NCBI GenBank assembly: GCA_017649945.1
Contig: JAGCFU010000009.1
Coordinates: forward strand, 1 to 57,629
DNA length: 57,629 nt
From: Bacteroidales bacterium
GTDB taxonomy: Bacteria > Bacteroidota > Bacteroidia > Bacteroidales > F082
Direction of reading: 5' to 3'
In this document: one piece after another, positions 41,031-57,629 of the stretch
How the letters are laid out: every line of letters begins with the position of its first letter
How positions within the stretch are numbered: the stretch's first letter is position 1
The notes under the pieces: model-generated
Seen by the model: the letters and a program-made list of their open reading frames with translations, nothing else
What the model was told of the DNA's origin: nothing
Databases searched by the model: none
Position numbers and translations under genes: made by a program

Positions 41031-41040
41031 GTTACTATCT

Positions 41041-42852
41041 TTACATTCTCTCTGGCATCTGCATACCCAGCAAGTTACCTGCGTTACGCAGCAAACGTGC
41101 CGTCATTGCCGCCAACTGCAAACGGAACGCTCTGCGTTTCTCGTCCTGTTCCTTCAAGATACTACACTCCTGATAGAACTGGTTGAATCCTTTGCAGAGG
41201 TCGTAGATGTAGTTGGCAACCATAGCCGGACTGCGGTTTATAGCCGCTTGTTCAAGCACTCCCGGCCATGTATGAATATTGGTAAGGAGCGTTTTCTCGC
41301 TAGGCAAAATATTATTTATAATAATATTATTGCCAGCGTCAATTCCAGCTTCTGCAGCCTTTCTCAACACCGAGCAGATACGCGCGTGGGTGTACTGTAT
41401 GAATGAGCCAGTATTGCCATTGAAATCGATTGATTCTTTCGGGTCGAACAGCATCGTCTTCTTAGGGTCAACTTTCAAGATGAAGTACTTCAGAGCGCCG
41501 AGTCCTATCATGTGATACAATTTGTTTGCCTCTTCGTCACTCAATCCGTGAGCTTTTCCCAATTCTTCCGACACGTTCTTCGCCGTCGCGACCATCTCGT
41601 CCATAAGGTCATCGGCATCGACCACCGTTCCTTCGCGCGACTTCATCTTACCGCTTGGCAACTCAACCATACCATAGGACAGATGTTCAATGTCGTTACC
41701 CCATTCAAAGCCTAATCTCACTAAAACACGTTTCAGCACGTCGAAATGATAATTCTGTTCATTACCAACGACATAGATCAGTTTCTTCGGATGGAACTCG
41801 TCATAACGAAGTTGAGCAGTTCCAAGGTCTTGAGTCATATACACGGAAGTTCCGTCTCTACGAAGCAGCAGTTTCTCGTCCAATCCCTCGTCACGGAGGT
41901 CACACCACACCGAGTTGTCATCTCTCTGATACAGAACGCCTTTCTTCAAGCCATCCATCACCGTGCTCTTACCCAACAAGTAGGTCTGTGATTCGTAATA
42001 GATCTTGTCGAACGACACTCCGAGACGTTTGTACGTCACATCAAAGCCTTCGTAAACCCAGTTGTTCATCATCTCCCAAAGTTCTCTCACCTCTTTGTCA
42101 CCGGCCTCCCATTTGCGCAGCATTTCCCTTGTCTCCTGCATCAGTGGAGAATTATTTTCAGCTTCAGCCTTGGCTTTGTCTTTAGCCTCGTCGTCAAGCT
42201 CATCATAATTCGCAGGTAACAGATTCTTCACTTCTTCCTTGAAATGTTTGTCGAACATCACATAGAAGTCGCCAATGAGGTGGTCGCCTTTCTTCCCCGT
42301 CGATTCCGGAGTGCATCCGTTGCCCCATTTCTGCCATGCTATCATGCTCTTGCAGATATGAATACCTCTATCGTTAACGAGATTCACACGCACAACATTT
42401 TCGCCGTTGGCTTTGAGTATTTCGCTCACACTCCAACCCAACAGGTTATTACGGATATGACCGAGATGCAACGGTTTGTTGGTATTCGGTGAGGAATACT
42501 CCACCACTACCGGTTTGCCTGAAACCTCTTTTCGTCCGAACTTTTCATTCTGATGGTTCTTTTGCATGAAGTCAATCCAATAGCTGTCGGAAATCAACAG
42601 GTTGAGAAATCCTTTCACCACATTATATTGCGCGATGAACGTGCTTTCCTGCATCATCTCTGTTCCGAGTTCATTGGCAAGGGCTTCCGGAGCTTTTCCC
42701 GCAAGTTTCACAAACGGAAAAACCACAATAGTCACATCACCTTCAAATTCAGGGCGCGTTTTCTGAAAACTCACATTCTGCGCAGGAGGTTCCTGTCCGT
42801 AGAGTTTCTTGAAAGCGTCAACAAAAAGTTGTTTCAAAATCAATTCCAGCAT
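41041..42852 (-). CDS. argS: Arginyl-tRNA synthetase
   Basis: ArgS charges tRNA-Arg. The 603-residue class I enzyme has the N-terminal tRNA-binding domain (1-110), the HIGH motif as HLGH (129-132, in 'NTNKPLHLGHIRNN'), the KMSKS-like 'SGKMKSREGTVVDADDLMDE' and a helical DALR anticodon domain that ends 'NLLGMQMPERM'. It leads the argS-rsmE-DUF4159-zinc ribbon operon. A -7 element lies at 42889-42882. Confidence 0.97.
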   Translation of the reverse strand: MLELILKQLFVDAFKKLYGQEPPAQNVSFQKTRPEFEGDVTIVVFPFVKLAGKAPEALANELGTEMMQESTFIAQYNVVKGFLNLLISDSYWIDFMQKNHQNEKFGRKEVSGKPVVVEYSSPNTNKPLHLGHIRNNLLGWSVSEILKANGENVVRVNLVNDRGIHICKSMIAWQKWGNGCTPESTGKKGDHLIGDFYVMFDKHFKEEVKNLLPANYDELDDEAKDKAKAEAENNSPLMQETREMLRKWEAGDKEVRELWEMMNNWVYEGFDVTYKRLGVSFDKIYYESQTYLLGKSTVMDGLKKGVLYQRDDNSVWCDLRDEGLDEKLLLRRDGTSVYMTQDLGTAQLRYDEFHPKKLIYVVGNEQNYHFDVLKRVLVRLGFEWGNDIEHLSYGMVELPSGKMKSREGTVVDADDLMDEMVATAKNVSEELGKAHGLSDEEANKLYHMIGLGALKYFILKVDPKKTMLFDPKESIDFNGNTGSFIQYTHARICSVLRKAAEAGIDAGNNIIINNILPSEKTLLTNIHTWPGVLEQAAINRSPAMVANYIYDLCKGFNQFYQECSILKEQDEKRRAFRLQLAAMTARLLRNAGNLLGMQMPERM

Positions 42853-42881
42853 AGTACAAATCGTTATTTGATATTTGGGTG

Positions 42882-42889
42882 CAAAAATA
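42882..42889 (-). promoter_or_regulatory. -7 element (TATTTTTG) for the argS operon
   Basis: TATTTTTG on the minus strand lies 29 bases before the argS ATG, inside the 59-base gap after the RHS gene. So argS has its own promoter and need not depend on read-through from the RHS operon. Confidence 0.6.
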
Positions 42890-42911
42890 GTAAAAAACTA
42901 CCAATTACTTG

Positions 42912-45900
42912 TCATATTTTTAAAAATAAAGAACGAATCATGCTATAATTGTCTCCGACACCCATTTGATAATTGTTTTTAGGCATCAGATCATTGATTT
43001 TCAGAATCGTTCTATATGCCCAGCCCATATTCTCAACATTATCAATTTGGCCGAGTTTTTCAGCATAAACGTCTATGAAATTGACGACACTTGGAATAAC
43101 ATATTTCCCGAAATCCCCATTTTTAACATCTATACCCAAGACATCAAACAGGTTTTGCCCGGCGAACACGTTTCCGGCCACATTTGCGATTGTATTTTCA
43201 AATATTTCCTGGTCGAGAGTGCTGCCGCAAAGCATGCTTGCAAAGCTCACGCCTTGTTCGGTCTCAGTGGGATGAACTATGTATGAACCAAGCGCTGCCG
43301 ATGCCAGGCTCGAGCCCAAAGTATACATCACATCATGTTTCAAGTTGTCAGTGTCGATTTTATCCCAATCATAGCTTCCGTCGTTTTGTTTGATAAAATT
43401 ATTCACGCCGGCTTTCAATGTATTCCCGGCCACATTGCCAGCGACCTGCCATATCCATGCGCTTTCACTGAATCCATTTGTCAGACATCCCTGCACAAAT
43501 CCTGCCGTAAATGCGAGAAGACCCTCTCCCAAATCGTCAATATTGGGGGCATCGAAAATCAAATTCATCACGCCATTGAAAATGCCATAAAGCAGCCACT
43601 CGACCCATTCTCCCGAAGGATCATGGTAAGACAGCGGATTATTCCAACAGTAGCTGTACCGATTATAGTTTTGCGACATATCAGGACACTGGATGTAATT
43701 GTCAGGACTCATCATCATCGACAACATCGGGTCATAAGCACGACCATTCATGTTTATGATTCCAAACGACGACAAATGTTCATGTCCAGTAAACCCTCTG
43801 TCACACAGCAGTTCGCCGCTGTATCCGCCCGACCAGGTGTCGGCATTTCTCGGATTTCCCCAAGCGTCATAACTTGTTTTCTGGAGCACTTTACCATCTT
43901 CATCAGTAATCAGGCACCACGAACCAAGGTGATCTTTATGGACATATTTCATTGATTTCTCTCCGTTTTCATCAGTACAACAAACCGCGAAGACGCCCAT
44001 AGGCCCTCTGAGATAGGTGTATGCCGCGTTTTTGCCGTTAAAATCAACGTATTCACAATCGCCGGCATACACTTTTTCCTTCTTTTTGCCATCAATCATC
44101 TCGACCGAATAAATGCGCTCATAGTCATAGCCATAACCAATAGAATAACTATTGTTCCCTGTTTGAATATCGGAAATTTTGTCAAACGCAGTGTATGCAA
44201 CACTTTGGTTCATCCCTGACAGATTATCCCAATCAGTAGTGACTTTGCTTACAGCGTAAGGGCTGTCGCCATCATAATGCGCATCGTAATAAACGCTCTT
44301 GCCATCAATACTTTTTGAAAGGATATTTCCATAGTTATCATACTCCATCTCGCCAGTAACAGTCTTATCTTTCCTGATTTCAACCAGCCTGTTAAAATCA
44401 TCGTAAACGAAACTTTCACTGTGCTTGTTACCGGTCAGACTGCTCCTATTTGTAAGATTTCCGAATCCATCGTAAGAATATGAAAGGTCTTGATAAACTT
44501 TTTTGTCCTTTTGCGTGAATATTCCGCACAAAAGATTGGTTTTGGCATCATAGGTCAGAGTTGTTTGCATCCCATTGCCCATTTGATAATCAGTAACACG
44601 TCCCAGGGCATTTGTTTTGTCTGTATGCCAAAGCACTGTCTCATCGTCAGCATCAATCATCGACATATAATAGCCTGAATTTGAATATTTTTTCTGCACT
44701 GTCAGGCCACTGGAATAAGTCACGACATCCTCTCTATTTGCGTTGTCATACGAATAATTCGTGACATAACTGATGCCTTTAATATTTTCAGTCACACTCG
44801 TGATTCTCAGCAAATCGTCATAATAATATGACACAATATGGTTATTCCCGTAAATAATTTTTGACAAAGTGCCTATTTTACCTTTTTTATTATCATAAAT
44901 CCACTGTGTAGCAACGACATTGCCGCCATTCCCGTCAGATTCGGCTCGTCCAATAAGGTTGCCCATATTATCATAATTATAAGTCGTTATGCAATTTTTA
45001 GGGGATCTCATTTCAAGAAGTTCGCCATAGGCATTGTATTCATATTGCACTTCTCCACACGCCGGATCCTTCATTCTCAGCACGTTACGTCTGTTATCAT
45101 ATTCGTATTCGACTTTCGTCATGGGATTATCGCCAATCACAGCGCTTTTCAGCTTGCCATCGCTATAATACGCATAGTTAATAGTATTGCCGCCGATGTC
45201 CACTGTTTGCACGCGCCATCCCATCGCATTGTTCGTTTCAACGACGTTGTTAGATACTCCGTCAGGCGAAACGGTATTAATTGTCGTTTGCAGCTTATTG
45301 TAATGATAATTTTTCACCGTACCATTGGGCCACACCTCCTCGATCAGCCTGTTGTTTTTATCATAAACATAATACAACCTATCGATGTCGTCGCCTGCAA
45401 TATAAGGCATTGATTTAGAAATCATATTGCCATAATCATCGTAAGCCATATCGACATATACCGTTTCACCATTCGGATTAAACGAAACATCTCTGAGCTT
45501 TTTGCCTGTTTTACTGAAAAACGCCATCGTCTCCGCCTTTCCTTTTGTTTTTTCCCAACAATAGTATGAAGCAAGCTGTGGCGCATGTTTGTTGCCATTA
45601 GCCCACCGTTTCGTTTTCACATTAATAATGCCATCAGGCAACATTTTCTCAACCGTTATCTCAAAAGGATCTGACGAACATTTTGTCTCAAACTGGTTAT
45701 AATCAACCGTTGACAACAGGTTGCCGTAATTCTTGTCATAAGAATGATACGTTTCCCAACCATTTTCGTTAACCGTCGATGTCGGATAACGATGATTATA
45801 CTCTTCACCATAAGTCAGACTCGTAACTCTTTGATTTTTAGAGGATGGAGATGTTAGAACTTGAGTTACCGCATGACCGACATTATCATATGAATAGTCA

Positions 45901-48900
45901 GCGACGATTTTCAACGGATCGGCAAAATTCATATTAGCATTAGGCAAAGACGTTTTTTTAGTCACCTGATAGGCATTATTTCCTGAATAATCAAAAATAT
46001 CACACGAACCCACTGCGTCGTTATCCCCGTAATGCTTTGAATAAGAGATACTTTGCGGACGTGCCACTATCCATGCTGCAGGATTGTCATTAAAGACATA
46101 ATTCGTTCCCTCTCTATATGAGCAAGCTGACGCATCATTGCCTGTATAACTATCATCAACACCGAGCACCGAACTTGGATTCTTGACAAAATCAGTATAG
46201 TTGAAACCACCTATATCGCTCTGATAATCAAAGGATTCTATCTTTGTCTTTAAGACTGCGTTAGGGATGTCGAAATCATAAAAAATCGTTCTTTTATTTG
46301 AAATCAGAGGCATTACAGTCTTGGCATTCTGCGTGCAGGAATATTTTTCATATTCATACTGCTCTAAAGCCACCAACTGCCCGCTGTAATTATAAATTGA
46401 GCACGTTTTGGGCAATGCGATGAAGTAATCGTCCATAAAATCAACATCTTTTTCAAAAACCCTTGATTCTGAGACAGAGTTTCCAACCAGCAGTTTTGTC
46501 TCACTTTGCTCAAATCCAATGAGTCCGTGCCCTTTCGGGTGATACATCGCATTTTTGTAGGAATATTTTGTCACACATGGTTTATTGTTGATCGAGAAAA
46601 CCGTGTCTGACGCCAAAGCTTTAAACGGTATCGCGACAGTTCTCAGGCCTTCATTAATCCACCTATAATTATACGTGTAAAATTCATCACCCGACGGAAC
46701 GAGATACGCATATTTGAAACCTCTGGAGTTCCCGAGTCCGTCAGTGATACGCTCAACACAGAACTTCGACGAATGTGGATTCAACGACACTATTTTAGGA
46801 AATTCCGCATTATACGGGTTGCTTTTCACGCTGCCGAGAATGCTCGCATTTTCATGTCCAAGAAAATTCCCAACATGCACATACTGGTGAGAATGGTTGA
46901 TATTTAGATAAAATCGCTTTATGTCGCTGAATCCGAAATCTCCATTGGCTGATTCACACATCTTAAAACCGATTTCCATATAATGGTTCCCTCCAGTATT
47001 TTTAAAGACACCCACATCAGTTTTTCCATCACCGTCAAAATCAGCAGTTCGTATCGTGACCGACGGCGCAGACATGTTTTTCAGCGAGCAATAGTATCGA
47101 TCTTGAGGCGCAAGCATAAGTCCTCTTAACAAATTGTTGTTCAAACAGTTAACTGGCGTTCTCAGTCTCTGCCCGTCAGAAAAGGCTATTTTCCAATAAG
47201 TCCTGTCGTCGTATTTCAGAAAATCAGTGTATCCGTCGCCGTTAAAATCTCCAGGGAAAAGGAAGTCGTCGCTGTCAAAATTATCGTCAGTATACACCTC
47301 TCTAAGCTCATACGCGTTATTCTCATAAAACATTTTGGCGATGATGGCATTATCCGCCTTCAAAAATATGATTTCTGCCCGGCCGTCAGCGTCAATGTCT
47401 TCCACAACGATTCTCTCCGGATTTATCGAGCTCAGTTGTCCCCCGAGCGTGTGTGTATCAAATGAGCCATCAGCGTAATATACGGCGCACGGTGAGCTTT
47501 TGCTGTTGTTTGTGTGTTCATATTTCAACAGAAAGCCCACCTTGTCTTCCGCAAGAAAATCTCCAGGATATATGGTGAAAAAATCCGTGCTTTGATACTC
47601 TCCAAGGTACGAAAAATAGCCGTCATAATTCAAATATGCCACAATCTTTGACTTCCAATCATCATTGCTTGCATATTTGGCATAAAAAGCCACGACATCG
47701 TCAAGACCATCGCCGTTCAAATCAACTACATAAACCCATTCAAGCGTGTTATCAAAATAAAATGTATAATATTCATTATAAAACGAGCCATTCGCATCGT
47801 TCAGATAAACCGGCGCAATGACTTCATCAAGGTATGAATTGCCTGTTTTATACGGCACAGTAAGCGCATCCGACACTCCATCACCGTTAAAGTCACCGAC
47901 AAAAATCATTTTATTAAAGATGTTTTTATCCTGCGAATATGACAAGAATTTATCCTGATAATGACTCTTCTTATTCCAGTTAATCTTTGTAGAATTCAGT
48001 TTTACGCCCTTGGCCGCCAGTCCCACTTTGGCAAGTCTGTAATACAAGAATTTGTAATCACCCGCATAGTTTCCAGGCTCAAGATAATCGAAAGAATATT
48101 CATACAAAACCGCACCAGTATTCATGTTTTTAACAAGGATTTTGCTAAGTATCTTCTTTTTTTGGACATTATTGCCAAAAATGAAATATGACTCAACATC
48201 TTCCCTGTCGGAATATTCAAAACTCAGCCTATACATCGATTGGATGCCTGCATTATCGTTTAAAGTGTAGTCAATATAATTTATATACGACTCTCCAAAG
48301 CTTTGATGTTCAACATAATTAAAAACAATACTGTTGCCATCAGGATCTGAAATCTTATTTACGAGCCATGTGAGCACAAAATCCGATGCAGTCTGGGGTT
48401 CGACCCTCGAATCCTGAGTATATCCGTATTCCCACACAGTGCCGTCTTTTTTATGAACTTTGAATTTCGCCGGACCGTTATAACCATCAGTATACGAAAC
48501 GATTTTGCTCATTTCGTCAACCTCTGTCTTATAGACAGCGCCATTACCGCCATAATTGCCAGCGCACAGCATGAGTCGTTTACCATCCATGACGAACCTG
48601 TCATCAAGCAAATTCACAGCTGTTTTTTCTCCGTCATGATAATATGTCTTGCCTGTCCTGACTATCGAAGAAAGTCCCGACAAATCCCAGCACCATCCGA
48701 GCAAGCCATTTCCCGACTGGCTATCATAAACGACCGAAATCTCAGGCGTCATTTTGCCAAGTCCTTGTGGTATCTGCAAAGGCATCGAATATATTGCAGC
48801 ACCGATATCACTTACATTCAAGTTTCCCGGCAACGCGCCTACCACTCCATCCTGATCCGACATTATCGGACCTCCAATCATGCCGTCGTCAGGCGGAAAC

Positions 48901-49115
48901 ACTCCATATCTGTCAATAGACAAAGTAACATCATTCTTTTTCTGTGGCTCATATCGGAAGCCGTTCAACAGTGTTATCGACGTTGAAGCCTCGTAGAGCA
49001 TGCTTTGGTCTTTTGGAATCTCTGAATCGAGCACTATGTCGGTCTGCTGATACGTTTGCGAGTACATCTCCGCCATGACCAACGACAGCAAAATAAATAA
49101 CCATTTCTTTTTCAT
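42912..49115 (-). CDS. Giant secreted SpvB / FG-GAP / RHS (YD-repeat) protein
   Basis: This 2067-residue exported protein has a signal peptide (1-19, MKKKWLFILLSLVMAEMYS). An SpvB-like N-terminal domain follows (about 100-270; 'LGKMTPEISVVYDSQSGNGL'), then an integrin-like FG-GAP/VCBS propeller (about 400-740; 'GDFNGDGVSDALT', 'VDLNGDGLDDVVAF', 'ADFDGDGKTDVGVF'), many YD repeats (about 1100-1680; 'YEYDNRRNVLRMKDPACGEV'), and an RHS core (about 1690-1837, ending 'YHDPSGEW'). The last 230 residues (43604-42912) form a distinct tip without a known domain. It has no T9SS sorting domain and no immunity-like gene follows. The layout is that of TcB/TcC-like cocoon proteins. It looks A/T richer than argS beside it. 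Confidence 0.9.
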   Translation of the reverse strand: MKKKWLFILLSLVMAEMYSQTYQQTDIVLDSEIPKDQSMLYEASTSITLLNGFRYEPQKKNDVTLSIDRYGVFPPDDGMIGGPIMSDQDGVVGALPGNLNVSDIGAAIYSMPLQIPQGLGKMTPEISVVYDSQSGNGLLGWCWDLSGLSSIVRTGKTYYHDGEKTAVNLLDDRFVMDGKRLMLCAGNYGGNGAVYKTEVDEMSKIVSYTDGYNGPAKFKVHKKDGTVWEYGYTQDSRVEPQTASDFVLTWLVNKISDPDGNSIVFNYVEHQSFGESYINYIDYTLNDNAGIQSMYRLSFEYSDREDVESYFIFGNNVQKKKILSKILVKNMNTGAVLYEYSFDYLEPGNYAGDYKFLYYRLAKVGLAAKGVKLNSTKINWNKKSHYQDKFLSYSQDKNIFNKMIFVGDFNGDGVSDALTVPYKTGNSYLDEVIAPVYLNDANGSFYNEYYTFYFDNTLEWVYVVDLNGDGLDDVVAFYAKYASNDDWKSKIVAYLNYDGYFSYLGEYQSTDFFTIYPGDFLAEDKVGFLLKYEHTNNSKSSPCAVYYADGSFDTHTLGGQLSSINPERIVVEDIDADGRAEIIFLKADNAIIAKMFYENNAYELREVYTDDNFDSDDFLFPGDFNGDGYTDFLKYDDRTYWKIAFSDGQRLRTPVNCLNNNLLRGLMLAPQDRYYCSLKNMSAPSVTIRTADFDGDGKTDVGVFKNTGGNHYMEIGFKMCESANGDFGFSDIKRFYLNINHSHQYVHVGNFLGHENASILGSVKSNPYNAEFPKIVSLNPHSSKFCVERITDGLGNSRGFKYAYLVPSGDEFYTYNYRWINEGLRTVAIPFKALASDTVFSINNKPCVTKYSYKNAMYHPKGHGLIGFEQSETKLLVGNSVSESRVFEKDVDFMDDYFIALPKTCSIYNYSGQLVALEQYEYEKYSCTQNAKTVMPLISNKRTIFYDFDIPNAVLKTKIESFDYQSDIGGFNYTDFVKNPSSVLGVDDSYTGNDASACSYREGTNYVFNDNPAAWIVARPQSISYSKHYGDNDAVGSCDIFDYSGNNAYQVTKKTSLPNANMNFADPLKIVADYSYDNVGHAVTQVLTSPSSKNQRVTSLTYGEEYNHRYPTSTVNENGWETYHSYDKNYGNLLSTVDYNQFETKCSSDPFEITVEKMLPDGIINVKTKRWANGNKHAPQLASYYCWEKTKGKAETMAFFSKTGKKLRDVSFNPNGETVYVDMAYDDYGNMISKSMPYIAGDDIDRLYYVYDKNNRLIEEVWPNGTVKNYHYNKLQTTINTVSPDGVSNNVVETNNAMGWRVQTVDIGGNTINYAYYSDGKLKSAVIGDNPMTKVEYEYDNRRNVLRMKDPACGEVQYEYNAYGELLEMRSPKNCITTYNYDNMGNLIGRAESDGNGGNVVATQWIYDNKKGKIGTLSKIIYGNNHIVSYYYDDLLRITSVTENIKGISYVTNYSYDNANREDVVTYSSGLTVQKKYSNSGYYMSMIDADDETVLWHTDKTNALGRVTDYQMGNGMQTTLTYDAKTNLLCGIFTQKDKKVYQDLSYSYDGFGNLTNRSSLTGNKHSESFVYDDFNRLVEIRKDKTVTGEMEYDNYGNILSKSIDGKSVYYDAHYDGDSPYAVSKVTTDWDNLSGMNQSVAYTAFDKISDIQTGNNSYSIGYGYDYERIYSVEMIDGKKKEKVYAGDCEYVDFNGKNAAYTYLRGPMGVFAVCCTDENGEKSMKYVHKDHLGSWCLITDEDGKVLQKTSYDAWGNPRNADTWSGGYSGELLCDRGFTGHEHLSSFGIINMNGRAYDPMLSMMMSPDNYIQCPDMSQNYNRYSYCWNNPLSYHDPSGEWVEWLLYGIFNGVMNLIFDAPNIDDLGEGLLAFTAGFVQGCLTNGFSESAWIWQVAGNVAGNTLKAGVNNFIKQNDGSYDWDKIDTDNLKHDVMYTLGSSLASAALGSYIVHPTETEQGVSFASMLCGSTLDQEIFENTIANVAGNVFAGQNLFDVLGIDVKNGDFGKYVIPSVVNFIDVYAEKLGQIDNVENMGWAYRTILKINDLMPKNNYQMGVGDNYSMIRSLFLKI

Positions 49116-49126
49116 AAACTTAAATT

Positions 49127-49552
49127 TTACCGTTTCAAAATTACTTTAGAAAAAACCTCTTCCCCTTTATATATTTTAAGAAGATACACTCCTGTGTTTA
49201 ACGTCCCGATGTCAACAAATGTCTCTCCGACATACAAATCGGCTTTCACATGAAGCATGCCATTGACATCATATAATTCAAAATGCTGCGAGGTGTACTC
49301 AAAACCATCAGGCACGACAATAGTAAAACATCCTTCTGTAGGATTCGGATACACCACGATTTCTCCCACATCAACCAATTCCCGCACATCATCTTCATCG
49401 CCCCTGCCGTTGCAGTCATAGTCCACGATACGGCTTACCCTGTTGCCGTCAGAATCATAATCGAAAACCAGACAGTTTTGGGCATATGTTTCATTATACC
49501 AAGCGAAAGACATTAGGAGTGCAAGAAACATTAAAAAATATTTCGTCCTCAT
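49127..49552 (-). CDS. Mini T9SS protein with a single YD-like motif
   Basis: This 141-residue protein has a signal peptide (1-25, ending 'ETYAQ'), then one YD/RHS-like motif ('FDYDSDGNRVSRIVDYD', about 30-46), an acidic linker, and a T9SS type A sorting domain (about 66-141; 'VVYPNPTEGCFTIVV', ending 'FSKVILKR'). It contains nothing else. It lies 11 bases before the RHS gene, which has YD repeats but no sorting domain. It may be an adaptor that brings the RHS protein to the T9SS, or a decoy or remnant. Function is unknown. Confidence 0.82.
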   Translation of the reverse strand: MRTKYFLMFLALLMSFAWYNETYAQNCLVFDYDSDGNRVSRIVDYDCNGRGDEDDVRELVDVGEIVVYPNPTEGCFTIVVPDGFEYTSQHFELYDVNGMLHVKADLYVGETFVDIGTLNTGVYLLKIYKGEEVFSKVILKR

Positions 49553-49573
49553 AACTAATATGTTTTAAATAAG

Positions 49574-50560
49574 TTACTTAGCGGTCGCTTTCAATTTATC
49601 AATAACATCTTGTTGAGCCTGCAACTGTCGCTGCAGTTCGATAGTATACAATGTCAGCTCCTCAATCTTTTTCAGGAGCACTCCTTCCATAATAGCAACA
49701 TCATAGCCATTCTCTTGAATATCGCTATCAGATGGAAGATCCGGCAAATGTTTATTATCACGAATATACTTCTCCAGCTCACACAACGGCATCAAGTGAT
49801 AATCATCAGAGAACACATAATCGTGCCATTCGCCGACCTCCTTAACGTAGACTTTACTGGTAAGAACTCCACCTTTCACGGCCAAGGAATAATCGTAATC
49901 ACCGGTAAAAGTGTTATCGATATTTATTCCTACTTTTCCACTTATTTTAACGCTTGACGCATCAAAACTCAGCGCGTCATCGGCCGACGATATCTTCATA
50001 CCGTCTTTCGACACAACAATTTTATGATTGTCATCATACAGCTGCAAGAAAGCCGTCTTTGAAGCCTTGTTTGATGTCTCAAGAATCATTCCGGCATCTT
50101 CATTGGAGTCCGACAACATATGAAGTTTCGCTAAAGGATTCGTCATATTTCCTATGCCAATCTTTCCAGTCGTGACTCCTCCGTTGGATGGTCCGACAAA
50201 CAATGTAGGTTTGCGGCTGTTAAACCCGACCATCAATGTCCCCGAATAATTGTTAATCAGTGCTTTAGATTCAGTATTATCCGTTCCGGCACCGATAACT
50301 ATTGCATTTGTAGCGTTCGCCCAAGCGAATTTACCCAGAGCCAACGAGGCTGCGCCAACGGTTTTGTTAGCTTGTCCGATAGCCATAGAATTGGCTCCCA
50401 TTGTTATATTATTCATTCCCACAGTGGCGGAATAGTTACCTTTTGCCTGATTTTGTGATGTTCCCGATGGTCCGCACAAATCGCAGCCACCCTTTTCCTG
50501 CGCCATTATCACACTACTTACAAGTGATAAAGCGATAAATAAAAAATTACGTAGTTTCAT
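49574..50560 (-). CDS. Exported tail-fibre / YadA-head-like protein with coiled-coil end
   Basis: This 328-residue exported protein has a signal peptide (1-20, ending 'SSVIMAQ'). A run of short hydrophobic repeats follows (about 40-100; 'NNITMGANSMAIGQANKTVG', 'ASLALGKFAWANATNAIVIG'), typical of trimeric adhesin heads of the YadA/Hep_Hag kind. A variable middle comes next, and then the C-terminus of many Bacteroidota tail-fibre-like proteins: 'HLPDLPSDSDIQENGYDVAI' and a coiled coil (about 290-325). No sorting domain is seen. It is the third gene of the RHS operon; a trimeric surface fibre is plausible. Confidence 0.8.
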   Translation of the reverse strand: MKLRNFLFIALSLVSSVIMAQEKGGCDLCGPSGTSQNQAKGNYSATVGMNNITMGANSMAIGQANKTVGAASLALGKFAWANATNAIVIGAGTDNTESKALINNYSGTLMVGFNSRKPTLFVGPSNGGVTTGKIGIGNMTNPLAKLHMLSDSNEDAGMILETSNKASKTAFLQLYDDNHKIVVSKDGMKISSADDALSFDASSVKISGKVGINIDNTFTGDYDYSLAVKGGVLTSKVYVKEVGEWHDYVFSDDYHLMPLCELEKYIRDNKHLPDLPSDSDIQENGYDVAIMEGVLLKKIEELTLYTIELQRQLQAQQDVIDKLKATAK

Positions 50561-50584
50561 AAATCTAAAATTTAAATCCTTTAA

Positions 50585-52072
50585 TCAATTTTTAATAAAA
50601 TTTCCTTTTTGTGTAGCATTACCATCTACACATACTTCATAAAAATACGCTCCGTCCTCAAGTGATGACACGTCAATCGTCAGCAAGCCTCCGCAGCATT
50701 CTAATCTACGCTCGAAACGTTTCCGCCCCATGCCATCAGCAATCGTCACCTGGTACCGCCTACAGCCGACATCGTATAGGACTATATTCAAGCGATCATT
50801 TGTCGGATTCGGGTATGCCTGCTGGTGTGGCGGAGCCTCCGGTGTCTCATTCAGAGTCCAAGGAATCACGAAATCTTCAGGCAAAAGCTTCCAAACATAC
50901 ACCATGTAACTGCCATAACTTTCCTTGCATTGTCCATAAACGAGGCATCCTCCGTCAAATGTCTTTTGGCAGTGCATTATTCTTATCTTGGTGTCATCAA
51001 TTTTCAGTCTTTTCGTCCCTCTAAGATTCAACTTATTGTCTATCAAGCATATAACAGCATCCGACGGCATCTCATTATACCCACTTTCCCAATATGTTGC
51101 TATGTATATCTCATCGTTACTAACATAGGCCATGCTGCCGAACTGAGCCGTATAATCAGAGGTATCAGCTCTGTCATACACCAAAGTGTCAACGTAATGT
51201 CCTTCAGCATCGACTTCAAACACCGCCACATAATAAGAATTGTTCACAACACCATAATGATGCGTCATCGACGACATCAGAAAATGTCCGTTATCTTTCC
51301 AACAATCCGTGTAATTCCTGTTATCCTCAAGCCATGGCAACGGATAAGTGGCAACCTTGTCCAACTCGTTGTCAATATAACAAATGCTATGACAGTTGTT
51401 GACATAAAATCCTTTCCCTATCAGCATCATGTTATCGCTATTCGGAACCCTGATAATACCGGTAGGCCTCGCGCCATTCGCTCCATGTCCTTCCGTGAAA
51501 TACTTGCTTTTCAGCACGTTACCGTTTGTATCACATTTCAACAAAGCGTACACACCATTCGTCACATTCGGATATTCCTGCTCGCTGACATCTGTCAAGA
51601 CAATGACATTCCCTTCATTATCAAAATCCAAGTAAACATCGGTTGTCCACGTCTTATACGGTGCCACCAACGGATAATTATGTTCTTCAAGAATCTCAAG
51701 TCCTGGATTCATCACCGTTATCCACAACGTATCGTATTCGTGATCCGTCAACTTCCCTCCTTTGACTCCAACAACAAAAGCGTTTCCGTTCTCAAGACAT
51801 ATTGCACTGCAAAAATGCGACTTATATTCTTCAAAACCAATCTTCCTATAAATATATTCACCGTTTCCGGAAACATAAATCACATAAGCATCCGAATATC
51901 CCAAGCCGTTTTCATTGTCACACGCCCCGACGATATAATTACCGTCGCCATTACAATCTCCGCCAACGAGCGTCACGCCTTCTTCAACAGGATACGTCAC
52001 CACCCATTGCTGCGATTGCATAACCAAGGCCTCCATGCATAACGCCAGCAACAAAAATCTCTTCATGACCAC
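50585..52072 (-). CDS. Secreted propeller-like protein with T9SS sorting domain
   Basis: This 495-residue exported protein has a signal peptide within 1-20 (MVMKRFLLLALCMEALVMQS). The middle looks like repeated beta-sheet blades ('GGDCNGDGNYIVGACDNENG', 'FDNEGNVIVLTDVSE', 'KTFDGGCLVYGQCKESYGSY') and I do not recognise a named domain. The C-terminus is a T9SS type A domain ('QQAYPNPTNDRLNIVL', about 417-495). It starts 8 bases after the first gene of the RHS operon. An in-frame Met at 52066 is an equal start candidate. Function is unknown; a surface or released binding protein is likely. Confidence 0.8.
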   Translation of the reverse strand: MVMKRFLLLALCMEALVMQSQQWVVTYPVEEGVTLVGGDCNGDGNYIVGACDNENGLGYSDAYVIYVSGNGEYIYRKIGFEEYKSHFCSAICLENGNAFVVGVKGGKLTDHEYDTLWITVMNPGLEILEEHNYPLVAPYKTWTTDVYLDFDNEGNVIVLTDVSEQEYPNVTNGVYALLKCDTNGNVLKSKYFTEGHGANGARPTGIIRVPNSDNMMLIGKGFYVNNCHSICYIDNELDKVATYPLPWLEDNRNYTDCWKDNGHFLMSSMTHHYGVVNNSYYVAVFEVDAEGHYVDTLVYDRADTSDYTAQFGSMAYVSNDEIYIATYWESGYNEMPSDAVICLIDNKLNLRGTKRLKIDDTKIRIMHCQKTFDGGCLVYGQCKESYGSYMVYVWKLLPEDFVIPWTLNETPEAPPHQQAYPNPTNDRLNIVLYDVGCRRYQVTIADGMGRKRFERRLECCGGLLTIDVSSLEDGAYFYEVCVDGNATQKGNFIKN

Positions 52073-52080
52073 AATCTCAA

Positions 52081-53160
52081 CTAATTCAACAAATCTCTCA
52101 ACGGAGGCAGCTCCTGCGACGGAATAGCCACCTTATTGCCATATACCACATAGTTTTTGTGATGGCAACACGTCCCGTTTCCAATATAATCCAACAGTCC
52201 GACTATATCCACCTCAACAAATGCAGGATCTTTAGGCATATAAGCCTGATATCTCGGATCCGACGGCAAAATATGCAGCAACACCTCGAGCTCCCTTGTG
52301 TAATAATAGTTAAGCATCTCGTAATCCAAATACATCGGAGTGTTATCATTCAAATAATGGAAATACAAATACGGCTCCCCGTTTTCATCAAGATACTCAT
52401 TTCCGTCAATGGCAATCCTGAACAATCCTACATTAAGACGCCTGAATCCAGCCTGTGGAACATGTTCAGCCCGATAATAATAGTTGATTGTATCCTCAAT
52501 TATCTCAGCCGCGTCACAGAAAACCGACGGGTCGTCACAGCTACCGCCATATTCTCCGAAATACCAACAGTCACCGGGACCAAACGGACCTTGAACAGGA
52601 TCTTTAACAGTATTGTCACTCTCATAACGTCCCGAGATGACACAAACATCAATCTCCACCCTATTTCCGACCGTTTCTCCTTTGTCGACAACCACAGCCA
52701 TCAACGATTTGTCGGTACTGATTCCGTCACCGGCATAGGCCTGTCGCACCGCTTCTGTAATCTCATCATACAAATCCGCTACCACGCTGAGTGGAGCCTC
52801 ATTGTTTCCATTTACATCAACGAAAAATTCCAACTCCTGCTTGACCGTCTCCAAATATTTCCTTTCCGAAAATGCATACTCCGCATTGAAAAGCGCCTCA
52901 ACATTCCAAATGACGCTGTCAATCGGCATACATTGTCCGCTTCTCATAACATTTTCTTTATCAGCAATTTGGCGTTTAAACTTATTGATTTGCGATGCTA
53001 TAGTTCTCGCATTATCAGTATAATCATGATATTCCTCACCTTGAGCAGGCTTATTATTAATAGGTGTGACAAGTTCTTTTTTACATGCCTCAAGATATAA
53101 GGCTGCCCCTAACGTCAGCGTTACAATTAGTGAAATCCCTAAAATTTTTCTACGTTTCAT
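52081..53160 (-). CDS. Exported protein of unknown function, first gene of the RHS operon
   Basis: This 359-residue protein has an N-terminal hydrophobic segment (about 7-22) ending 'ALYLEACKK', which could be a weak lipobox with Cys26 as the lipid site. The rest is acidic and rich in Tyr, with a run of cysteines ('GDCWYFGEYGGSCDDPSVFC', 'GTCCHHKNYVVYG'). I do not recognise a domain. No sorting domain is present. A promoter about 150 bases upstream (53345-53315) and tight spacing place it at the head of a 10-kb transcript with four other secreted-protein genes. Confidence 0.75.
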   Translation of the reverse strand: MKRRKILGISLIVTLTLGAALYLEACKKELVTPINNKPAQGEEYHDYTDNARTIASQINKFKRQIADKENVMRSGQCMPIDSVIWNVEALFNAEYAFSERKYLETVKQELEFFVDVNGNNEAPLSVVADLYDEITEAVRQAYAGDGISTDKSLMAVVVDKGETVGNRVEIDVCVISGRYESDNTVKDPVQGPFGPGDCWYFGEYGGSCDDPSVFCDAAEIIEDTINYYYRAEHVPQAGFRRLNVGLFRIAIDGNEYLDENGEPYLYFHYLNDNTPMYLDYEMLNYYYTRELEVLLHILPSDPRYQAYMPKDPAFVEVDIVGLLDYIGNGTCCHHKNYVVYGNKVAIPSQELPPLRDLLN

Positions 53161-53314
53161 AAATATGACTTTTTAAATTAATAAAATAATGGATTACGCA
53201 CAACAAAATCTTGAATTGTCATCGCCCACAGCTATTTGTGCCCAAACTGCAGACTTTAAAAAAGTGTTTTTATCATGATCCGTTTCATAACTTTTAGCGT
53301 TTGTGTTTTCGATG

Positions 53315-53345
53315 CAAAATTATAACACTTTTTTTCATTTGTCAA
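53315..53345 (-). promoter_or_regulatory. Promoter of the five-gene RHS operon
   Basis: On the minus strand TTGACA (53345-53340) and TAATTTTG (53322-53315) are spaced 20 bases from the TTG, close to the ideal for Bacteroidota. Transcription should start near 53309, leaving a leader of about 150 bases. Confidence 0.7.
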
Positions 53346-53424
53346 GAACTTTTTTCATAAAATTTTTTAACATTTCATTCATTTTCATGCAATTATAGTT
53401 AAAAAAAATTTACAATATTTTTGA

Positions 53425-53454
53425 TTGATATTTCAAAAATATTTCGTAACTTTG
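53425..53454 (+). promoter_or_regulatory. Promoter of pyrBI
   Basis: TTG (53425-53427) and TAACTTTG (53447-53454) are 19 bases apart. The ATG of pyrB is at 53487, so the leader is about 27 bases, too short for an enterobacterial-type pyrBI attenuator. Confidence 0.7.
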
Positions 53455-53486
53455 CATTCCGATAATCAAATAAAATCTTTACAACA

Positions 53487-54407
53487 ATGTCTATCTCCTT
53501 GAAAAACCGTAGCCTGATTTCCATCAGCGACTACACTCCGGAAGAAATATGCCATGTTTTGGACATCGCCGAGGACTTTGAAAAGAACCCTCACCAGAAC
53601 TTGCTCAACGGACGCATCATCGCTTCGCTCTTCTTCGAACCTTCCACCCGTACACGTCTCAGCTTCGAGACAGCCATCCAGTTGCTCGGCGGTAACGTCA
53701 TCGGCTTCAGCAGCACCGCCGGCACCAGCGTGCAGAAAGGCGAATCGCTCGCCGACACCATCACAATGGTGGCTTCATACGCCGACCTCATCGTGATGCG
53801 TAACCCTATCGAAGGCTCTGCCCGTTTCGCATCGGAAGTGTCGAAAGTGCCGGTCATCAACGCAGGCGACGGAGCAAATCAGCACCCTACCCAGTGCATG
53901 CTCGACCTCTATAGCATCCGCAAGACTCAGGGAACTCTCGAAAACCTTGAAATCACGCTCGTGGGCGACCTCAAATACGGCCGCACAGTGCACAGCCTCG
54001 TAGAAGCCATGTGCCACTTCAACGCCAAGTTCAACCTCGTCTCCCCTGTCGAGCTGAAACTGCCGAGTGTTGTAAAACAGCACATCAAAGACAAACATCT
54101 TGAGTATCATCAATATACAGAGCTCGAAGAAGCCATTCCGCATAGCGATATCATCTACATGACACGTATCCAACGCGAGCGCTTCCCGGATCCTGAGGAA
54201 TACGAAAAAGTGAAGAATTCATACGTTTTGCGCAATGCAATGCTTGACGCTTCAAAGCCTAACTGCCGCGTGCTGCACCCACTTCCGCGTGTCAACGAAA
54301 TCCATGTCGACGTCGACGCCAACCCGAAGGCTTACTACTTCCAACAGGCACAGAACGGCGTTTACGCCCGCGAGGCTCTGATTGCCACAATCCTCGGATT
54401 AAAATAA
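53487..54407 (+). CDS. pyrB: Aspartate carbamoyltransferase catalytic chain
   Basis: PyrB condenses carbamoyl phosphate and aspartate, the committed step of pyrimidine synthesis. The 306-residue protein has the carbamoyl-phosphate motif '[15 protein letters not shown]' (STRT at 53-56), Lys84 in '[10 protein letters not shown]', '[10 protein letters not shown]' (His133) and 'HPLPRVNEI'. The regulatory chain gene follows, so the holoenzyme is probably the 12-subunit, allosterically controlled form. A heptamer array (TTTAAAA type) fills the gap to pyrI, starting at the pyrB stop. Confidence 0.97.
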
Positions 54408-54489
54408 TTTAAAATTTAAAATTCAAAATTCAAAATTAAGAGTTACAAAGTTTTAAATCTTTAAATTTTAAATCTTAAATCTTTAAATG
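54408..54489. repeat. Inverted heptamer array (TTTAAAA / TTCAAAA) between pyrB and pyrI
   Basis: Right after the pyrB TAA come TTTAAAA twice, TTCAAAA twice and TTAAGAG (54408-54442). A right part of opposite sense then follows (TTTTAAA, TCTTTAAA, TTTTAAA, TCTTAAA, TCTTTAAATG; 54451-54489). The halves can pair into an A/U hairpin. The final ATG at 54487 is out of frame with pyrI. Confidence 0.8.
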
Positions 54490-54497
54490 AAAAAGTT

Positions 54498-54965
54498 ATG
54501 GAAAAGAGAAAAGAATTAATCGTGTCTGCCATTGAGAATGGCACCGTTATCGACCATATCCCTGCCGACAAAGTGTTCCAGGTCGTGAAGATTTTGGGAC
54601 TTGAAAAAGTCAGCAACCCTGTGTATTTCGGCACCAACGTGGAAAGCAAGAAATACGGAAAGAAAGGCTTCATAAAGGTCTCTAACAAATATTTCGCACC
54701 GGAAGACTACAACAAAATCGGTTTGGTGGCTCCGACAGCTTCAATCATCGAAATCAAAGATTACGAAGTGATTAAAAAACAAACAGTTACGCTTCCTGAC
54801 AGCATCGAGCACATCGTAAAATGCTTCAACCCTAACTGCGTCACTAACAAAGAACACGATGTTCCGACCAAGTTCACGGTCATAAAAGACGCTGAAGGCA
54901 ATATCAAACTGCATTGCCACTACTGCGAAAAGAACACGACGCAGGATAAGCTGGAGTTTATATAA
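54498..54965 (+). CDS. pyrI: Aspartate carbamoyltransferase regulatory chain
   Basis: PyrI binds nucleotides and passes the feedback signal to PyrB. The 155-residue protein has the allosteric domain (1-100; 'AIENGTVIDHIPADKVFQVV') and the zinc domain with four cysteines: Cys109 and Cys114 ('CFNPNC') and Cys140 and Cys143 ('CHYC'). The spacing matches that of the enteric regulatory chain closely. A strong terminator begins directly at its stop codon. Confidence 0.97.
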   Translation: MEKRKELIVSAIENGTVIDHIPADKVFQVVKILGLEKVSNPVYFGTNVESKKYGKKGFIKVSNKYFAPEDYNKIGLVAPTASIIEIKDYEVIKKQTVTLPDSIEHIVKCFNPNCVTNKEHDVPTKFTVIKDAEGNIKLHCHYCEKNTTQDKLEFI

Positions 54966-54994
54966 AAAAAGGTCGGCGTTGCCGACCTTTTTTT
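54964..54994. terminator. Bidirectional Rho-independent terminator of pyrBI and DUF3467
   Basis: Seven A, then GGTCGGC, loop GTT, GCCGACC and seven T form a perfect 14-base stem with T tracts in both directions. The right T tract runs into the stop codon of the minus-strand DUF3467 gene (54995-54993). It serves both convergent transcripts. Confidence 0.95.
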
Positions 54995-55298
54995 ATGCCT
55001 CCCCTGCTGACCCCATCGTAAACGGAGCCACAGTGTCGTTGATGTCCTTTATAGGACCGAAATTCTGTTCGTATTTCTGCAAATTTTCAGCCAACGCCCT
55101 GAATAACCTCTTGGCATGCTGAGGTGTCATGATGACTCTCGAACGCACCTTCGCCTTCTGCATAGCAGGAGCAATCTGAGCGAAATCAATAACAAACTCT
55201 GTCGGTGAATGGCTTATAATCGCCAAATTTGAATAAACACCGTCCGCAACAGTTTCCGGAATGTCGATGTTTAATTGTTTCTTGTTGTTGTTTTCCAT
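54993..55298 (-). CDS. DUF3467 family protein downstream of rpoC
   Basis: This is a 101-residue cytoplasmic protein. Its core 'VADGVYSNLAIISHSPTEFV' and 'RVIMTPQHAKRLFRALAENL' are typical of DUF3467, a small beta-rich family often encoded right after rpoC in Bacteroidota. Its function is unknown. It is separated from rpoC by the TAGCCAT heptamer array and ends in the shared terminator. Confidence 0.9.
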   Translation of the reverse strand: MENNNKKQLNIDIPETVADGVYSNLAIISHSPTEFVIDFAQIAPAMQKAKVRSRVIMTPQHAKRLFRALAENLQKYEQNFGPIKDINDTVAPFTMGSAGEA

Positions 55299-55315
55299 AA
55301 TTCTATTTATTTAAA

Positions 55316-55410
55316 AAGCCATTAGCTACTAGCCAATAGCCATTAGGTAATTATTACGGTAGAATAATGCTAATGGCTAATAGCTAACGGCTAATGGCTA
55401 ATGACTAATT
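55316..55410. repeat. Inverted array of the heptamer TAGCCAT between rpoC and DUF3467
   Basis: On the minus strand the array starts in the rpoC stop codon (TAATTAGTCA) and continues as TTAGCCA-type heptamers (variants TTAGCCG, TTAGCTA). After a spacer of about 20 bases the units recur in the opposite sense. The word is the same as at 1981-2058, 53 kb away. Pairing of the two halves gives a long hairpin between two co-directed genes. Confidence 0.85.
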
Positions 55411-57629
55411 ACGCCTCAACCGGTTCAGCAGTAACCACCTCAGGATACATATCTTCCTTCGAACCGACAATCAAATCGTCGTATTCGCGCAAACCTGTAC
55501 CTGCAGGGATCTTGTGACCCACGATGACGTTCTCTTTCATACCCTCGAGATAGTCGGTCTTTGCGCTGATAGCAGCCTGTGTCAAGACCTTCGTTGTCTC
55601 CTGGAATGAAGCGGCCGAGATAAAGCTGTCGGTCTGCAAAGCGGCGCGTGTGATACCCTGAAGCACCTGGTGTGCTGTAGCAGGTTTCGCGTCACGTGCC
55701 TCGACGAGTTTCTTGTCGCGACGTTTCAATGATGAATTTTCGTCACGCAGTCTTCTTGCCGAGATAATCTGACCCACAAACAATGTATCTGAATCGCCCG
55801 GATCTGTAACAACGACCTTTCCGAAGATGTCGTCGTTGGTCTCCTGGAACGTAATCTTGCTAACGAGCTCGCCCTCAAGGTATCTTGTGTCACCCGGATC
55901 GTCGATTTCAACCTTACGCATCATCTGACGAACAATGACCTCAAAGTGCTTACCGTTGATGGTCACACCTTGTGAACGATACACCTCCTGAACGTTGTTC
56001 ACGATGTATTCCTGAACCTTCATAGGACCTTCGATAGCCAAGATGTTGGCCGGTGTGATGGCACCTTCCGACAATGGCTGACCTGCCTTCACGTAGTCGT
56101 TTTCTGAAGCGAGAACTTCCTTCGTTGTCGGGATGAGATACTTCTTCACCTCACCTGTCTTCGACGTGACAACCAACACACGGTTACCACGCACGAGCTT
56201 CTTCTCAAACGAGACCTCACCGTCGATTTCAGAGATGATAGCCGGTTCTGAAGAGTTACGTGCCTCGAAGAGCTCTGTAACACGTGGAAGACCACCGGTG
56301 ATATCGCCCAGACCTCCAGTAGCACGCGGCTTCTTGGTCAGGATGTCACCAGCCTTGATCTTGTCACCGTCCTCAACCATGACGTGTGCGCCGACAGGCA
56401 AGTCATATGACTTGATGACCTCGCCACTCTTGTCAACGATTGAAATTGACGGGTTCTTCGAGAACTTACGGCCTTCGATGATAACACGCTCGTTGTAACC
56501 TGTCTGCTCATCCGATTCATTACGGAATGTGACGTTCTCAACGATGTTGTCGAAACGTGCCTTACCGTCATGCTCAGAGATGATGAGTGAGTTATATTTA
56601 TCCCATTCGCAGATGATATCGCCTTGGTTGACGTCGCTGCCAGCCGGGATGTACAACTTAGAACCGTAAGGGATGTTCTCTGTGACGAGAGCGATACCTG
56701 TATTGTGGTCCAAAATCTTCATCTCACTTGCACGGCTCACCACGACCTGGTACTTGTTGTTGTCCTTATCGACATAGTCAACAGCACGTAAGTCGTTGAT
56801 AATCATCTTGCCGCTATAATCTGCCTTAATCATTGAGTCTTCCGATGTGCTCGATGCAGTACCACCTTGGTGGAAGGTACGCAATGTCAACTGTGTACCA
56901 GGCTCACCGATTGACTGTGCCGCGATAACGCCGACGGCCTCGCCTCTCTGAACGAGTTTACCTGATGAAAGGTTACGTCCGTAGCAGTTGGCGCAAACGC
57001 CCTTCTTCGACTCGCAAGTCAACACGGAACGGATTTCAATGGTCTGGTCTTTCAAAGGTGAATCGCAAATTCTCTTAGCGATGTCTTCAGTGATTTCAGC
57101 GCCACCGTTGCAGAGCAACTCGCCTGTCTGTGGATGGAAGATGTCGTGCAAAGCCACACGGCCGAGGATACGGTCGTACAACGACTCGACGATTTCCTTA
57201 CCGCGTTTCAAAGCACCTATTGACAAACCTCTTAATGTGCCGCAGTCTTTCTCAGTGATGATAACATCGTGAGCGACGTCGACCAAACGACGGGTCAAGT
57301 AACCAGCGTCAGCGGTCTTCAAAGCGGTATCGGCCAAACCTTTACGGGCACCGTGGGTTGAGATGAAGTACTCCAACACTGACAAACCTTCCTTGAAGTT
57401 CGAAAGAATCGGGTTCTCGATAATCTCAGCGCCACCGGCTGCTGTTGATTTCTGCGGTTTTGCCATCAAACCTCTCATACCGCAAAGCTGACGAATCTGC
57501 TCCTTACTACCACGAGCTCCTGAATCCAACATCATGTAAACCGGGTTGAATCCCTGGTCGTCCTGAGGCAACAGCTTCATAACCTCGTCGGTCAGCTTGG
57601 TGACGTCGTGACCCCAAATATCGATAATC
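55409..57629 (-). CDS. rpoC: RNA polymerase beta' subunit (3' part, 5' end outside window)
   Basis: About 740 C-terminal residues of the beta' subunit are present; the reading frame is open to the window edge (from 57628), so the upstream part is missing only because of the window. Key elements are '[20 protein letters not shown]' near the bridge helix, the zinc-binding cysteines '[11 protein letters not shown]', and '[20 protein letters not shown]' at the trigger loop. The C-terminal '[20 protein letters not shown]' and '[19 protein letters not shown]' are also there. It ends 'VTAEPVEA'. Its stop opens a heptamer array. Confidence 0.97.

What the first reader, a model, noticed from the sequence alone, without database searches (positions are those of the whole stretch)
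49127..49552. RHS protein without sorting signal next to a tiny sorting-domain protein that carries one YD motif
The 141-residue protein is almost only signal peptide, one YD-like motif (FDYDSDGNRVSRIVDYD) and a T9SS domain. Its neighbour 11 bases downstream is full of YD repeats but has no sorting domain. A YD strand given in trans could complete or dock onto the RHS cocoon and lend it the sorting signal, a split-cargo route to T9SS export. Alternatively the pair arose by gene fission.
Basis: inference. Interest (0 to 1): 0.75.

Follow-up and report, generated by a model that had tools for sequence, protein, structure and literature searches.

The report
Tiny export-tag partner of RHS proteins
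Next to giant RHS surface proteins that lack an export tag, these bacteria encode a tiny protein made of one RHS-like hairpin plus the export tag, which probably clips onto the giant and carries it to the cell surface.

Summary
In detail: a 141-aa protein of signal peptide, one YD motif, linker and type A T9SS sorting domain (CTD) lies 11 bases before a 2067-aa RHS protein without CTD. It is no local oddity. SP-YD-CTD mini-proteins occur in 26 families of Bacteroidia (labels). Of 61 fetched, 57 have RHS in the fetched stretch, 58 after a wider look; of 22 short CTD proteins without the motif, 4 do. RHS-first, 14 of 18 RHS genes of the window's type have such a mini-protein (15 with a long form), against 1 of 61 others. 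In five genomes the YD-CTD module is fused to the YadA-like gene of the operon, still directly before RHS. In one family, 12 of 14 such RHS loci in SprA-positive genomes have it, 0 of 2 in SprA-negative ones. Best explanation: an adaptor that docks on RHS, lends it the T9SS signal in trans and anchors it. Docking and export are not shown; my structure jobs could not test them. Eight paper searches showed no description of it.

The parts
49127..49552 (-). mini-protein gene (141 aa): signal peptide, YD motif, linker, type A sorting domain
49478..49552 (-). presumed signal peptide, residues 1-25
   Evidence: read by eye from the sequence
49412..49477 (-). YD stretch, residues 26-47, with invariant D33, G36, N37 and flanking C27 and C47
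   Evidence: predicted hairpin strands 27-32 and 39-44 with pLDDT mostly under 50
49361..49411 (-). variable linker, residues 48-64
49130..49360 (-). type A T9SS sorting domain, about residues 65-141
   Evidence: PF18962 43 bits; TIGR04183 43.6 bits
49116..49126 (.). 11-base gap between mini-protein stop and RHS start
42912..49115 (-). RHS protein, 2067 aa, presumed signal peptide, SpvB/FG-GAP/YD/RHS core, no sorting domain
49574..50560 (-). YadA-head-like protein with coiled-coil-like C-terminus; fused to the YD-CTD module in five other genomes
   Evidence: PF05658 19.6 bits, below its cut-off of 25; fusions
50585..52072 (-). 495-aa sorting-domain protein of the same conserved gene row
   Evidence: PF18962 33.3 bits; row conserved
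52081..53160 (-). 359-aa protein, lipoprotein-like by eye, first gene of the conserved row
   Evidence: no family match; row conserved

Best explanation
The mini-protein is an export adaptor for the RHS protein. Both enter the periplasm by their own signal peptides. The single YD hairpin at the mature N-terminus of the mini-protein adds onto the YD-repeat shell of its partner RHS. The linked type A sorting domain is recognised by the T9SS (PorV/SprA) and pulls RHS through the outer membrane. If the sorting domain is then cut off and replaced by a lipid-sugar anchor, as for other type A cargo, a peptide of about 40 residues stays as the clip that holds RHS on the surface. A reason for doing this in trans: the C-terminus of an RHS protein usually lies inside, or is cut within, the closed shell (recalled), so a C-terminal tag there would not work. 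Shown: layout, conservation, neighbourhood, lack of a type A sorting domain in RHS, fusion to a sister gene, link to SprA in one family. Inferred: docking, export in trans, anchoring.
For: 58 of 61 YD-CTD mini-proteins lie with RHS against 4 of 22 short CTD proteins without the motif (p 5.6e-11 on 57/4 vs 4/18). RHS genes of the window's type have a mini-protein in 14 of 18 loci (15 with a long form) against 1 of 61 others. None of 78 RHS ORFs with visible C-terminus hits the type A model. Motif residues are as invariant as those of the sorting domain and the YD stretch is better conserved than the sorting domain in 13 orthologues. The motif is RHS-like: its profile matches teneurin-like proteins 9ifo and 9pt5 at E 0.004-0.005. 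YD-CTD is fused to the YadA-like gene in five genomes, 16-21 bases before RHS. In family f42, 12 of 14 long RHS loci in SprA-positive genomes have a mini-protein 5-35 bases upstream, 0 of 2 in SprA-negative genomes. SprA is present in the window's genome. Type A CTDs are stated to be necessary and sufficient for export of fused proteins (PMC12618676, passages), and substrates are stated to leave CTD-first with PorV (PMC10994853, passages).
Against: No contact between the two proteins was shown or modelled; the RHS fragment model failed and the hairpin alone is low-confidence. RHS genes of the window's type without an adjacent partner in SprA-positive genomes exist: L149, G871 C16 and G876. Mini-protein L186 has no RHS on its 8.6-kb contig. 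Many other RHS types with a signal-peptide-like start lack both a type A sorting domain and such a partner, so lack of the tag alone proves little. Type B sorting domains in RHS were not excluded. In G834 and G937 the turn of the motif has decayed (YNAQGSC) beside an RHS gene. Both mini-protein searches began from RHS-linked members, so the 61 are not independent. Whether a folded RHS shell fits the translocon was not examined.
Confidence: 0.55

Rival explanations
1. Surface receptor only: the mini-protein is exported alone by T9SS, is anchored, and its YD peptide captures RHS that leaves the cell by another route.
For: Same neighbourhood and motif evidence. A ~40-residue anchored peptide would suit a receptor.
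Against: RHS has its own signal-peptide-like start and no other exporter was seen beside it; other routes were not surveyed. The mini-protein is missing where SprA is missing in 2 of 2 f42 loci, which fits this rival equally well.
Confidence: 0.16
2. The sorting domain serves the YadA-like stalk, and the hairpin links stalk and RHS: a three-part surface structure in which the mini-protein primarily exports the stalk.
For: Five stalk-YD-CTD fusions. The stalk gene is next to the mini-protein in L058-L074 and lacks a sorting domain there (for the window).
Against: Many mini-protein/RHS pairs show no stalk gene in the fetched stretch by BLAST to the window's stalk (for example L084, L086, L088, L179, L183, L201). 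The hairpin, not needed for stalk export, is kept in every fusion seen.
Confidence: 0.13
3. Assembly factor: the hairpin completes or plugs the RHS shell in the periplasm, and the sorting domain merely sends the factor out with other cargo.
For: In partnered RHS the repeat just before the core often reads YGxDxxR where other RHS read Y[DN]xxGx[RK], the form the mini-protein carries (read by eye).
Against: A sorting domain would be unnecessary. The motif model found no single matching site in the RHS arrays.
Confidence: 0.08
4. Relic of gene fission or chance neighbour without function.
For: The motif is an RHS-type repeat; RHS tips and pieces are common.
Against: Kept in 26 families with invariant motif residues. 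Has its own signal peptide. Lies 5' of RHS in most loci, whereas a split C-terminal tag would lie 3'. Fusions are with another gene.
Confidence: 0.02

Closest known systems
T9SS type A cargo (Por_Secre_tail, PF18962, TIGR04183)
   Same: signal peptide plus a type A sorting domain above curated cut-offs
   Different: almost no cargo of its own: one RHS-like hairpin, and the presumed cargo is a second protein
TANFOR-domain polymorphic toxins of Bacteroidetes (PMC7073777, passages read)
   Same: proteins proposed as T9SS substrates with genes for sorting-domain proteins enriched nearby
   Different: the neighbours described are larger SprB/CTD proteins; no hairpin shared with the toxin is described in the passages I saw; the window RHS has no TANFOR match
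Type B CTD proteins with PorP/SprF-like partners (PMC12618676, passages)
   Same: a dedicated neighbouring partner gene is needed for export
   Different: there the partner is a membrane shuttle and the cargo carries its own CTD; here the partner would carry the CTD
TcB-TcC split shells and T6SS Rhs with helper proteins (recalled, not from a call)
   Same: an RHS shell built or handled with a second polypeptide
   Different: the second part there is a large shell half or a chaperone, not a hairpin with a sorting tag

Membership tests
T9SS type A cargo (mini-protein) | C-terminal type A sorting domain | tested here: met
   PF18962 43 bits vs 27; TIGR04183 43.6 vs 23
T9SS type A cargo (mini-protein) | Sec signal peptide | tested here: inconclusive
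   hydrophobic N-terminus ending AQ read by eye; no predictor run
T9SS type A cargo (mini-protein) | T9SS translocon in the same genome | tested here: met
   SprA, 2506 bits
T9SS type A cargo (mini-protein) | T9SS-dependent export | not testable with these tools
   needs an experiment
T9SS type A cargo (RHS protein) | own C-terminal sorting domain | tested here: not met
   no match at E 0.1
RHS / YD-repeat proteins (RHS protein) | RHS core and YD repeats | tested here: met
   TIGR03696 50.9 vs 32.5, TIGR01643 46 vs 15.8
Polymorphic RHS toxin with immunity gene (window locus) | variable C-terminus and neighbouring immunity gene | tested here: inconclusive
   argS follows in the window and in L058-L069; four aligned C-terminal parts align throughout; no toxin family matched; other loci have small genes after RHS
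TANFOR polymorphic toxins | N-terminal TANFOR domain | tested here: not met
   no such match in NCBIfam at E 0.1; that NCBIfam holds a TANFOR model is recalled

The most novel reading that the evidence does not exclude
Across Bacteroidia, large RHS proteins are type IX cargo whose sorting signal is supplied in trans by a dedicated one-hairpin adaptor, which also becomes their lipid-linked surface clip: a modular split-cargo route in which any protein offering the docking surface could be exported.
Probability: 0.5. Interest if true: 0.85.

Novelty: new variant of a known kind. Interest (0 to 1): 0.74.

Why it matters
T9SS cargo is looked for by a C-terminal tag on the cargo itself. If the tag can sit on a separate adaptor, whole classes of untagged giant surface proteins, RHS first, have been missed as T9SS substrates. 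It would explain how proteins whose C-terminus is shut inside a shell can use a C-terminal-tag pathway, and would give a small portable clip for surface display. It is directly testable by deleting one 141-codon gene.

Tried and rejected
RHS fragment model (residues 868-2067, four-row alignment): mean pLDDT 35, unusable; no fold search was run. Motif model of the hairpin against the RHS arrays: no single site. The repeat before the RHS core was read by eye; suggestive, not used as proof. SprA presence across the phylum as a test: 50 of 53 and 27 of 27 genomes positive, uninformative; replaced by one family with and without SprA. Type B sorting domains in RHS C-termini: 78 members scanned, 51 families matched, 25 shown and no sorting domain among them; the other 26 were not shown, so not excluded. 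Gene fission: rejected as above. A first named-genome scan with the mini-protein confirmed no relative; the second, with RHS, gave three Bacteroidales MAG loci with the same gene row. Literature: eight searches, of which I saw the listings, and passages of seven papers; none that I saw joins an RHS protein to a sorting-domain mini-protein. Subscription papers are mostly missing and preprints are not held.

Rows chosen or dropped: the 79 RHS loci were picked by hand from the printed hits (59 with open frame of 1500 aa or more, 20 of about 1120-1430 aa). Several long printed hits were left out for variety, and hits that were not printed were never seen. One of the 79 (L150) runs off its 3' end, so 78 C-termini were seen. 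The class set covers the printed short frames only (down to about E 4e-17); L116 and L131 were already in hand and not counted. In the f42 count I used RHS frames over 1000 aa: G871 C16 (no mini-protein found) and G876 (a mini-like CTD protein about 3.6 kb away) are counted as misses, giving 12 of 14 against 0 of 2, p 0.05 worked out by hand; one search printed 12 of 13, p 0.029. Shorter RHS pieces in that family (G803, G839, G891, G911, G924 and others) were left out. A second mini-protein of G889 (L251) lies before an ORF that runs off the locus without an RHS hit; it is in no count.

Full report
What is there. On the minus strand the window holds a row of five genes: a 359-aa lipoprotein-like protein (53160-52081), a 495-aa sorting-domain protein (52072-50585), a YadA-head-like protein (50560-49574), the 141-aa mini-protein (49552-49127) and the 2067-aa RHS protein (49115-42912), followed by argS. 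The same row, with argS after RHS, is present in twelve same-genus loci (L058-L069), with mini-proteins 44-60% identical to the window's. Three named relatives with the same row are Bacteroidales MAGs; two record titles name water buffalo abomasum and red deer.

Conservation. In an alignment of 41 mini-proteins the invariant columns are D33, G36 and N37 of the YD motif and P69, N70, P71, G98 and Y123 of the sorting domain. Among 13 close orthologues the mean pairwise identity is 0.64 for the signal peptide, 0.63 for the YD stretch, 0.47 for the sorting domain and 0.30 for the linker. The motif begins a few residues after the presumed signal-peptide cleavage site, so the mature protein would start with the hairpin. 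A PDB search with the profile matched its YD part (26-49) to teneurin-like proteins 9ifo and 9pt5 (E 0.0044 and 0.005) and its C-terminal part to known sorting domains. The motif is thus an RHS-type repeat.

Mini-protein first. I took the short frames (under 200 aa) in the printed hit lists of a search of 100 relatives and of 296 class genomes, with one from the own genome, fetched their surroundings and scored them by one script. With a YD motif before the sorting domain there are 61, of which 57 have an RHS ORF in the stretch, each on the same strand. A 58th (L190) has an 836-aa RHS piece further upstream. Of the other three, L204 lies at a contig end, L186 is on an 8.6-kb contig without RHS, and L189 has only a weak hit that NCBIfam does not confirm. 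Without the motif there are 22, of which 4 have RHS by the script: L079 has lost its N-terminus beside a broken RHS, L181 holds a 104-aa copy within an array, L198 lies 4.3 kb away, and L215 is a 71-bit hit that NCBIfam does not call RHS. Fisher's exact test on 57/4 against 4/18 gives p 5.6e-11. A caution: both searches began from RHS-linked mini-proteins, so the 61 are relatives of each other; the proteins without the motif come from the same searches and act as control. In most loci the mini-protein lies within 50 bases before RHS; in L075 and L076 the YadA-like or another gene lies between; in L175, L188, L190, L191, L193, L196-L198 and L203 it follows RHS, mostly after one or more small genes. 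By the tools' labels the mini-proteins span 26 families, 27 with the long form below.

RHS first. From TIGR03696 searches of 296 phylum and 197 order genomes I fetched 79 RHS loci chosen by hand. None hits my type A sorting-domain model; one (L150) is cut at its C-terminus, so 78 were truly seen. 18 are of the window's type (100 bits or more to its N-terminal half). 14 of these have a mini-protein: L116, L121, L122, L128, L129, L131, L138, L140, L141, L142, L146 (via L224), L148, L150, L151. In L142 and L146 it lies 3' of RHS. L147 has a 567-aa protein with the YD motif right after its signal peptide and an end that looks like a sorting domain by eye (L230). L145 and L152 are cut by contig ends, and L149 has a long CTD neighbour without YD. 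Of the other 61 RHS loci one has a CTD mini-protein, with two YD motifs (L126). 15 of 18 against 1 of 61 gives p 2.3e-12, and 14 of 18 gives 3.5e-11. Against my reading: many of the other 61 start with a signal-peptide-like stretch and yet have neither a type A sorting domain nor such a partner, so RHS proteins without any T9SS sign are common.

Fusions. In L045, L047, L049, L050 and L052 (five genomes) the YD-CTD module is the C-terminus of a 527-568-aa protein whose N-terminal part is the YadA-like protein, 16-21 bases before RHS (L091-L093 show three of these loci at length). The hairpin is kept although the stalk would not need it for export. This ties stalk, hairpin and sorting domain into one unit and argues against a relic.

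With and without the secretion system. In one family (f42, 151 genomes) SprA is found in 111. Window-like RHS matches occur in 19 genomes. Counting RHS frames over 1000 aa, 14 lie in SprA-positive genomes and 12 of these have a mini-protein 5-35 bases upstream; in two of the twelve (G834, G937) the turn of the motif has decayed. The misses are G871 C16 (none found) and G876 (a mini-like CTD protein about 3.6 kb off). Two lie in SprA-negative genomes (G329, G848), where no sorting-domain hit was found. The numbers are small (0.05 by hand) and the two negatives are of one genus, but the direction fits: without the translocon the RHS gene stands alone.

Structure. AlphaFold2 on the mini-protein with three relatives gives a moderately confident sorting domain and a hairpin (strands 27-32 and 39-44) with pLDDT mostly under 50, i.e. 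no secure fold of its own. The RHS fragment failed. A two-chain model was not available, so docking is untested.

How it most likely works. Type A sorting domains are described as necessary and sufficient for export of fused proteins (PMC12618676, passages), and substrates as leaving the translocon CTD-first with PorV (PMC10994853, passages). A hairpin that adds to the RHS shell would tether RHS to such a domain. RHS C-termini end in the shell or are cleaved there (recalled), which gives a reason for a tag in trans. After the usual replacement of the sorting domain by a lipid-sugar anchor (starts of the abstracts of PMC8545088 and PMC4804311, listing), hairpin and linker would remain as a surface clip. 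Docking, export in trans and anchoring are inference.

Known or new. The nearest printed case I saw is the TANFOR class, polymorphic toxins with neighbouring T9SS substrates, hypothesised to be T9SS cargo (PMC7073777, passages). A Flavobacteriaceae genome paper describes a large rhs gene with SpvB and TcdB signatures and displaced tips (PMC6421346, passages), and an Apibacter paper lists three RHS genes as T9SS effectors (PMC12645872, passages); neither passage mentions a sorting-domain partner. In eight searches I saw no paper that does. The mini-proteins themselves meet the type A cargo model; the adaptor role and its spread are, as far as I could search, undescribed.

Noticed in passing
L104, L109, L119, L136, L139, L143, L144: All seven fetched RHS genes over 3000 aa have a 459-617-aa sorting-domain protein without YD motif 5-52 bases upstream: perhaps a second, unrelated partner type.
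   Followed up: no
L181:1-9256: An array in which RHS tips (about 450-473 aa, RHS core confirmed for one) alternate with YD-CTD mini-proteins.
   Followed up: partly
L126:6889-7341: A 150-aa CTD protein with two YD motifs 3' of a 1602-aa RHS gene of another type.
   Followed up: no
L079 (G058): A mini-protein that has lost its N-terminus beside an RHS gene in pieces: both decay together.
   Followed up: no
window 48950-49060 and L058-L195: Many partnered RHS proteins carry an A..SI.L..GF stretch after the signal peptide; in the window RHS residues 23-54 give a weak 3-coathanger hit (NF045639, E 0.0056, below cut-off).
   Followed up: partly
window about 43770-43860 and other RHS loci: The repeat just before the RHS core reads YGxDxxR in many partnered RHS and Y[DN]xxGx[RK] in many others, the form the mini-protein carries (by eye).
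   Followed up: partly
L205, L206, L209-L214, L217-L220: A different family of short (about 160-aa) sorting-domain proteins with a GG.A.G.GG...YS.GQ body recurs without RHS, mostly with another gene directly after it.
   Followed up: no
window 39673-57629: The five-gene row sits between argS-side housekeeping genes and a conserved gene at 53487-54407 (aspartate carbamoyltransferase by recall) in the window and in same-genus loci.
   Followed up: partly
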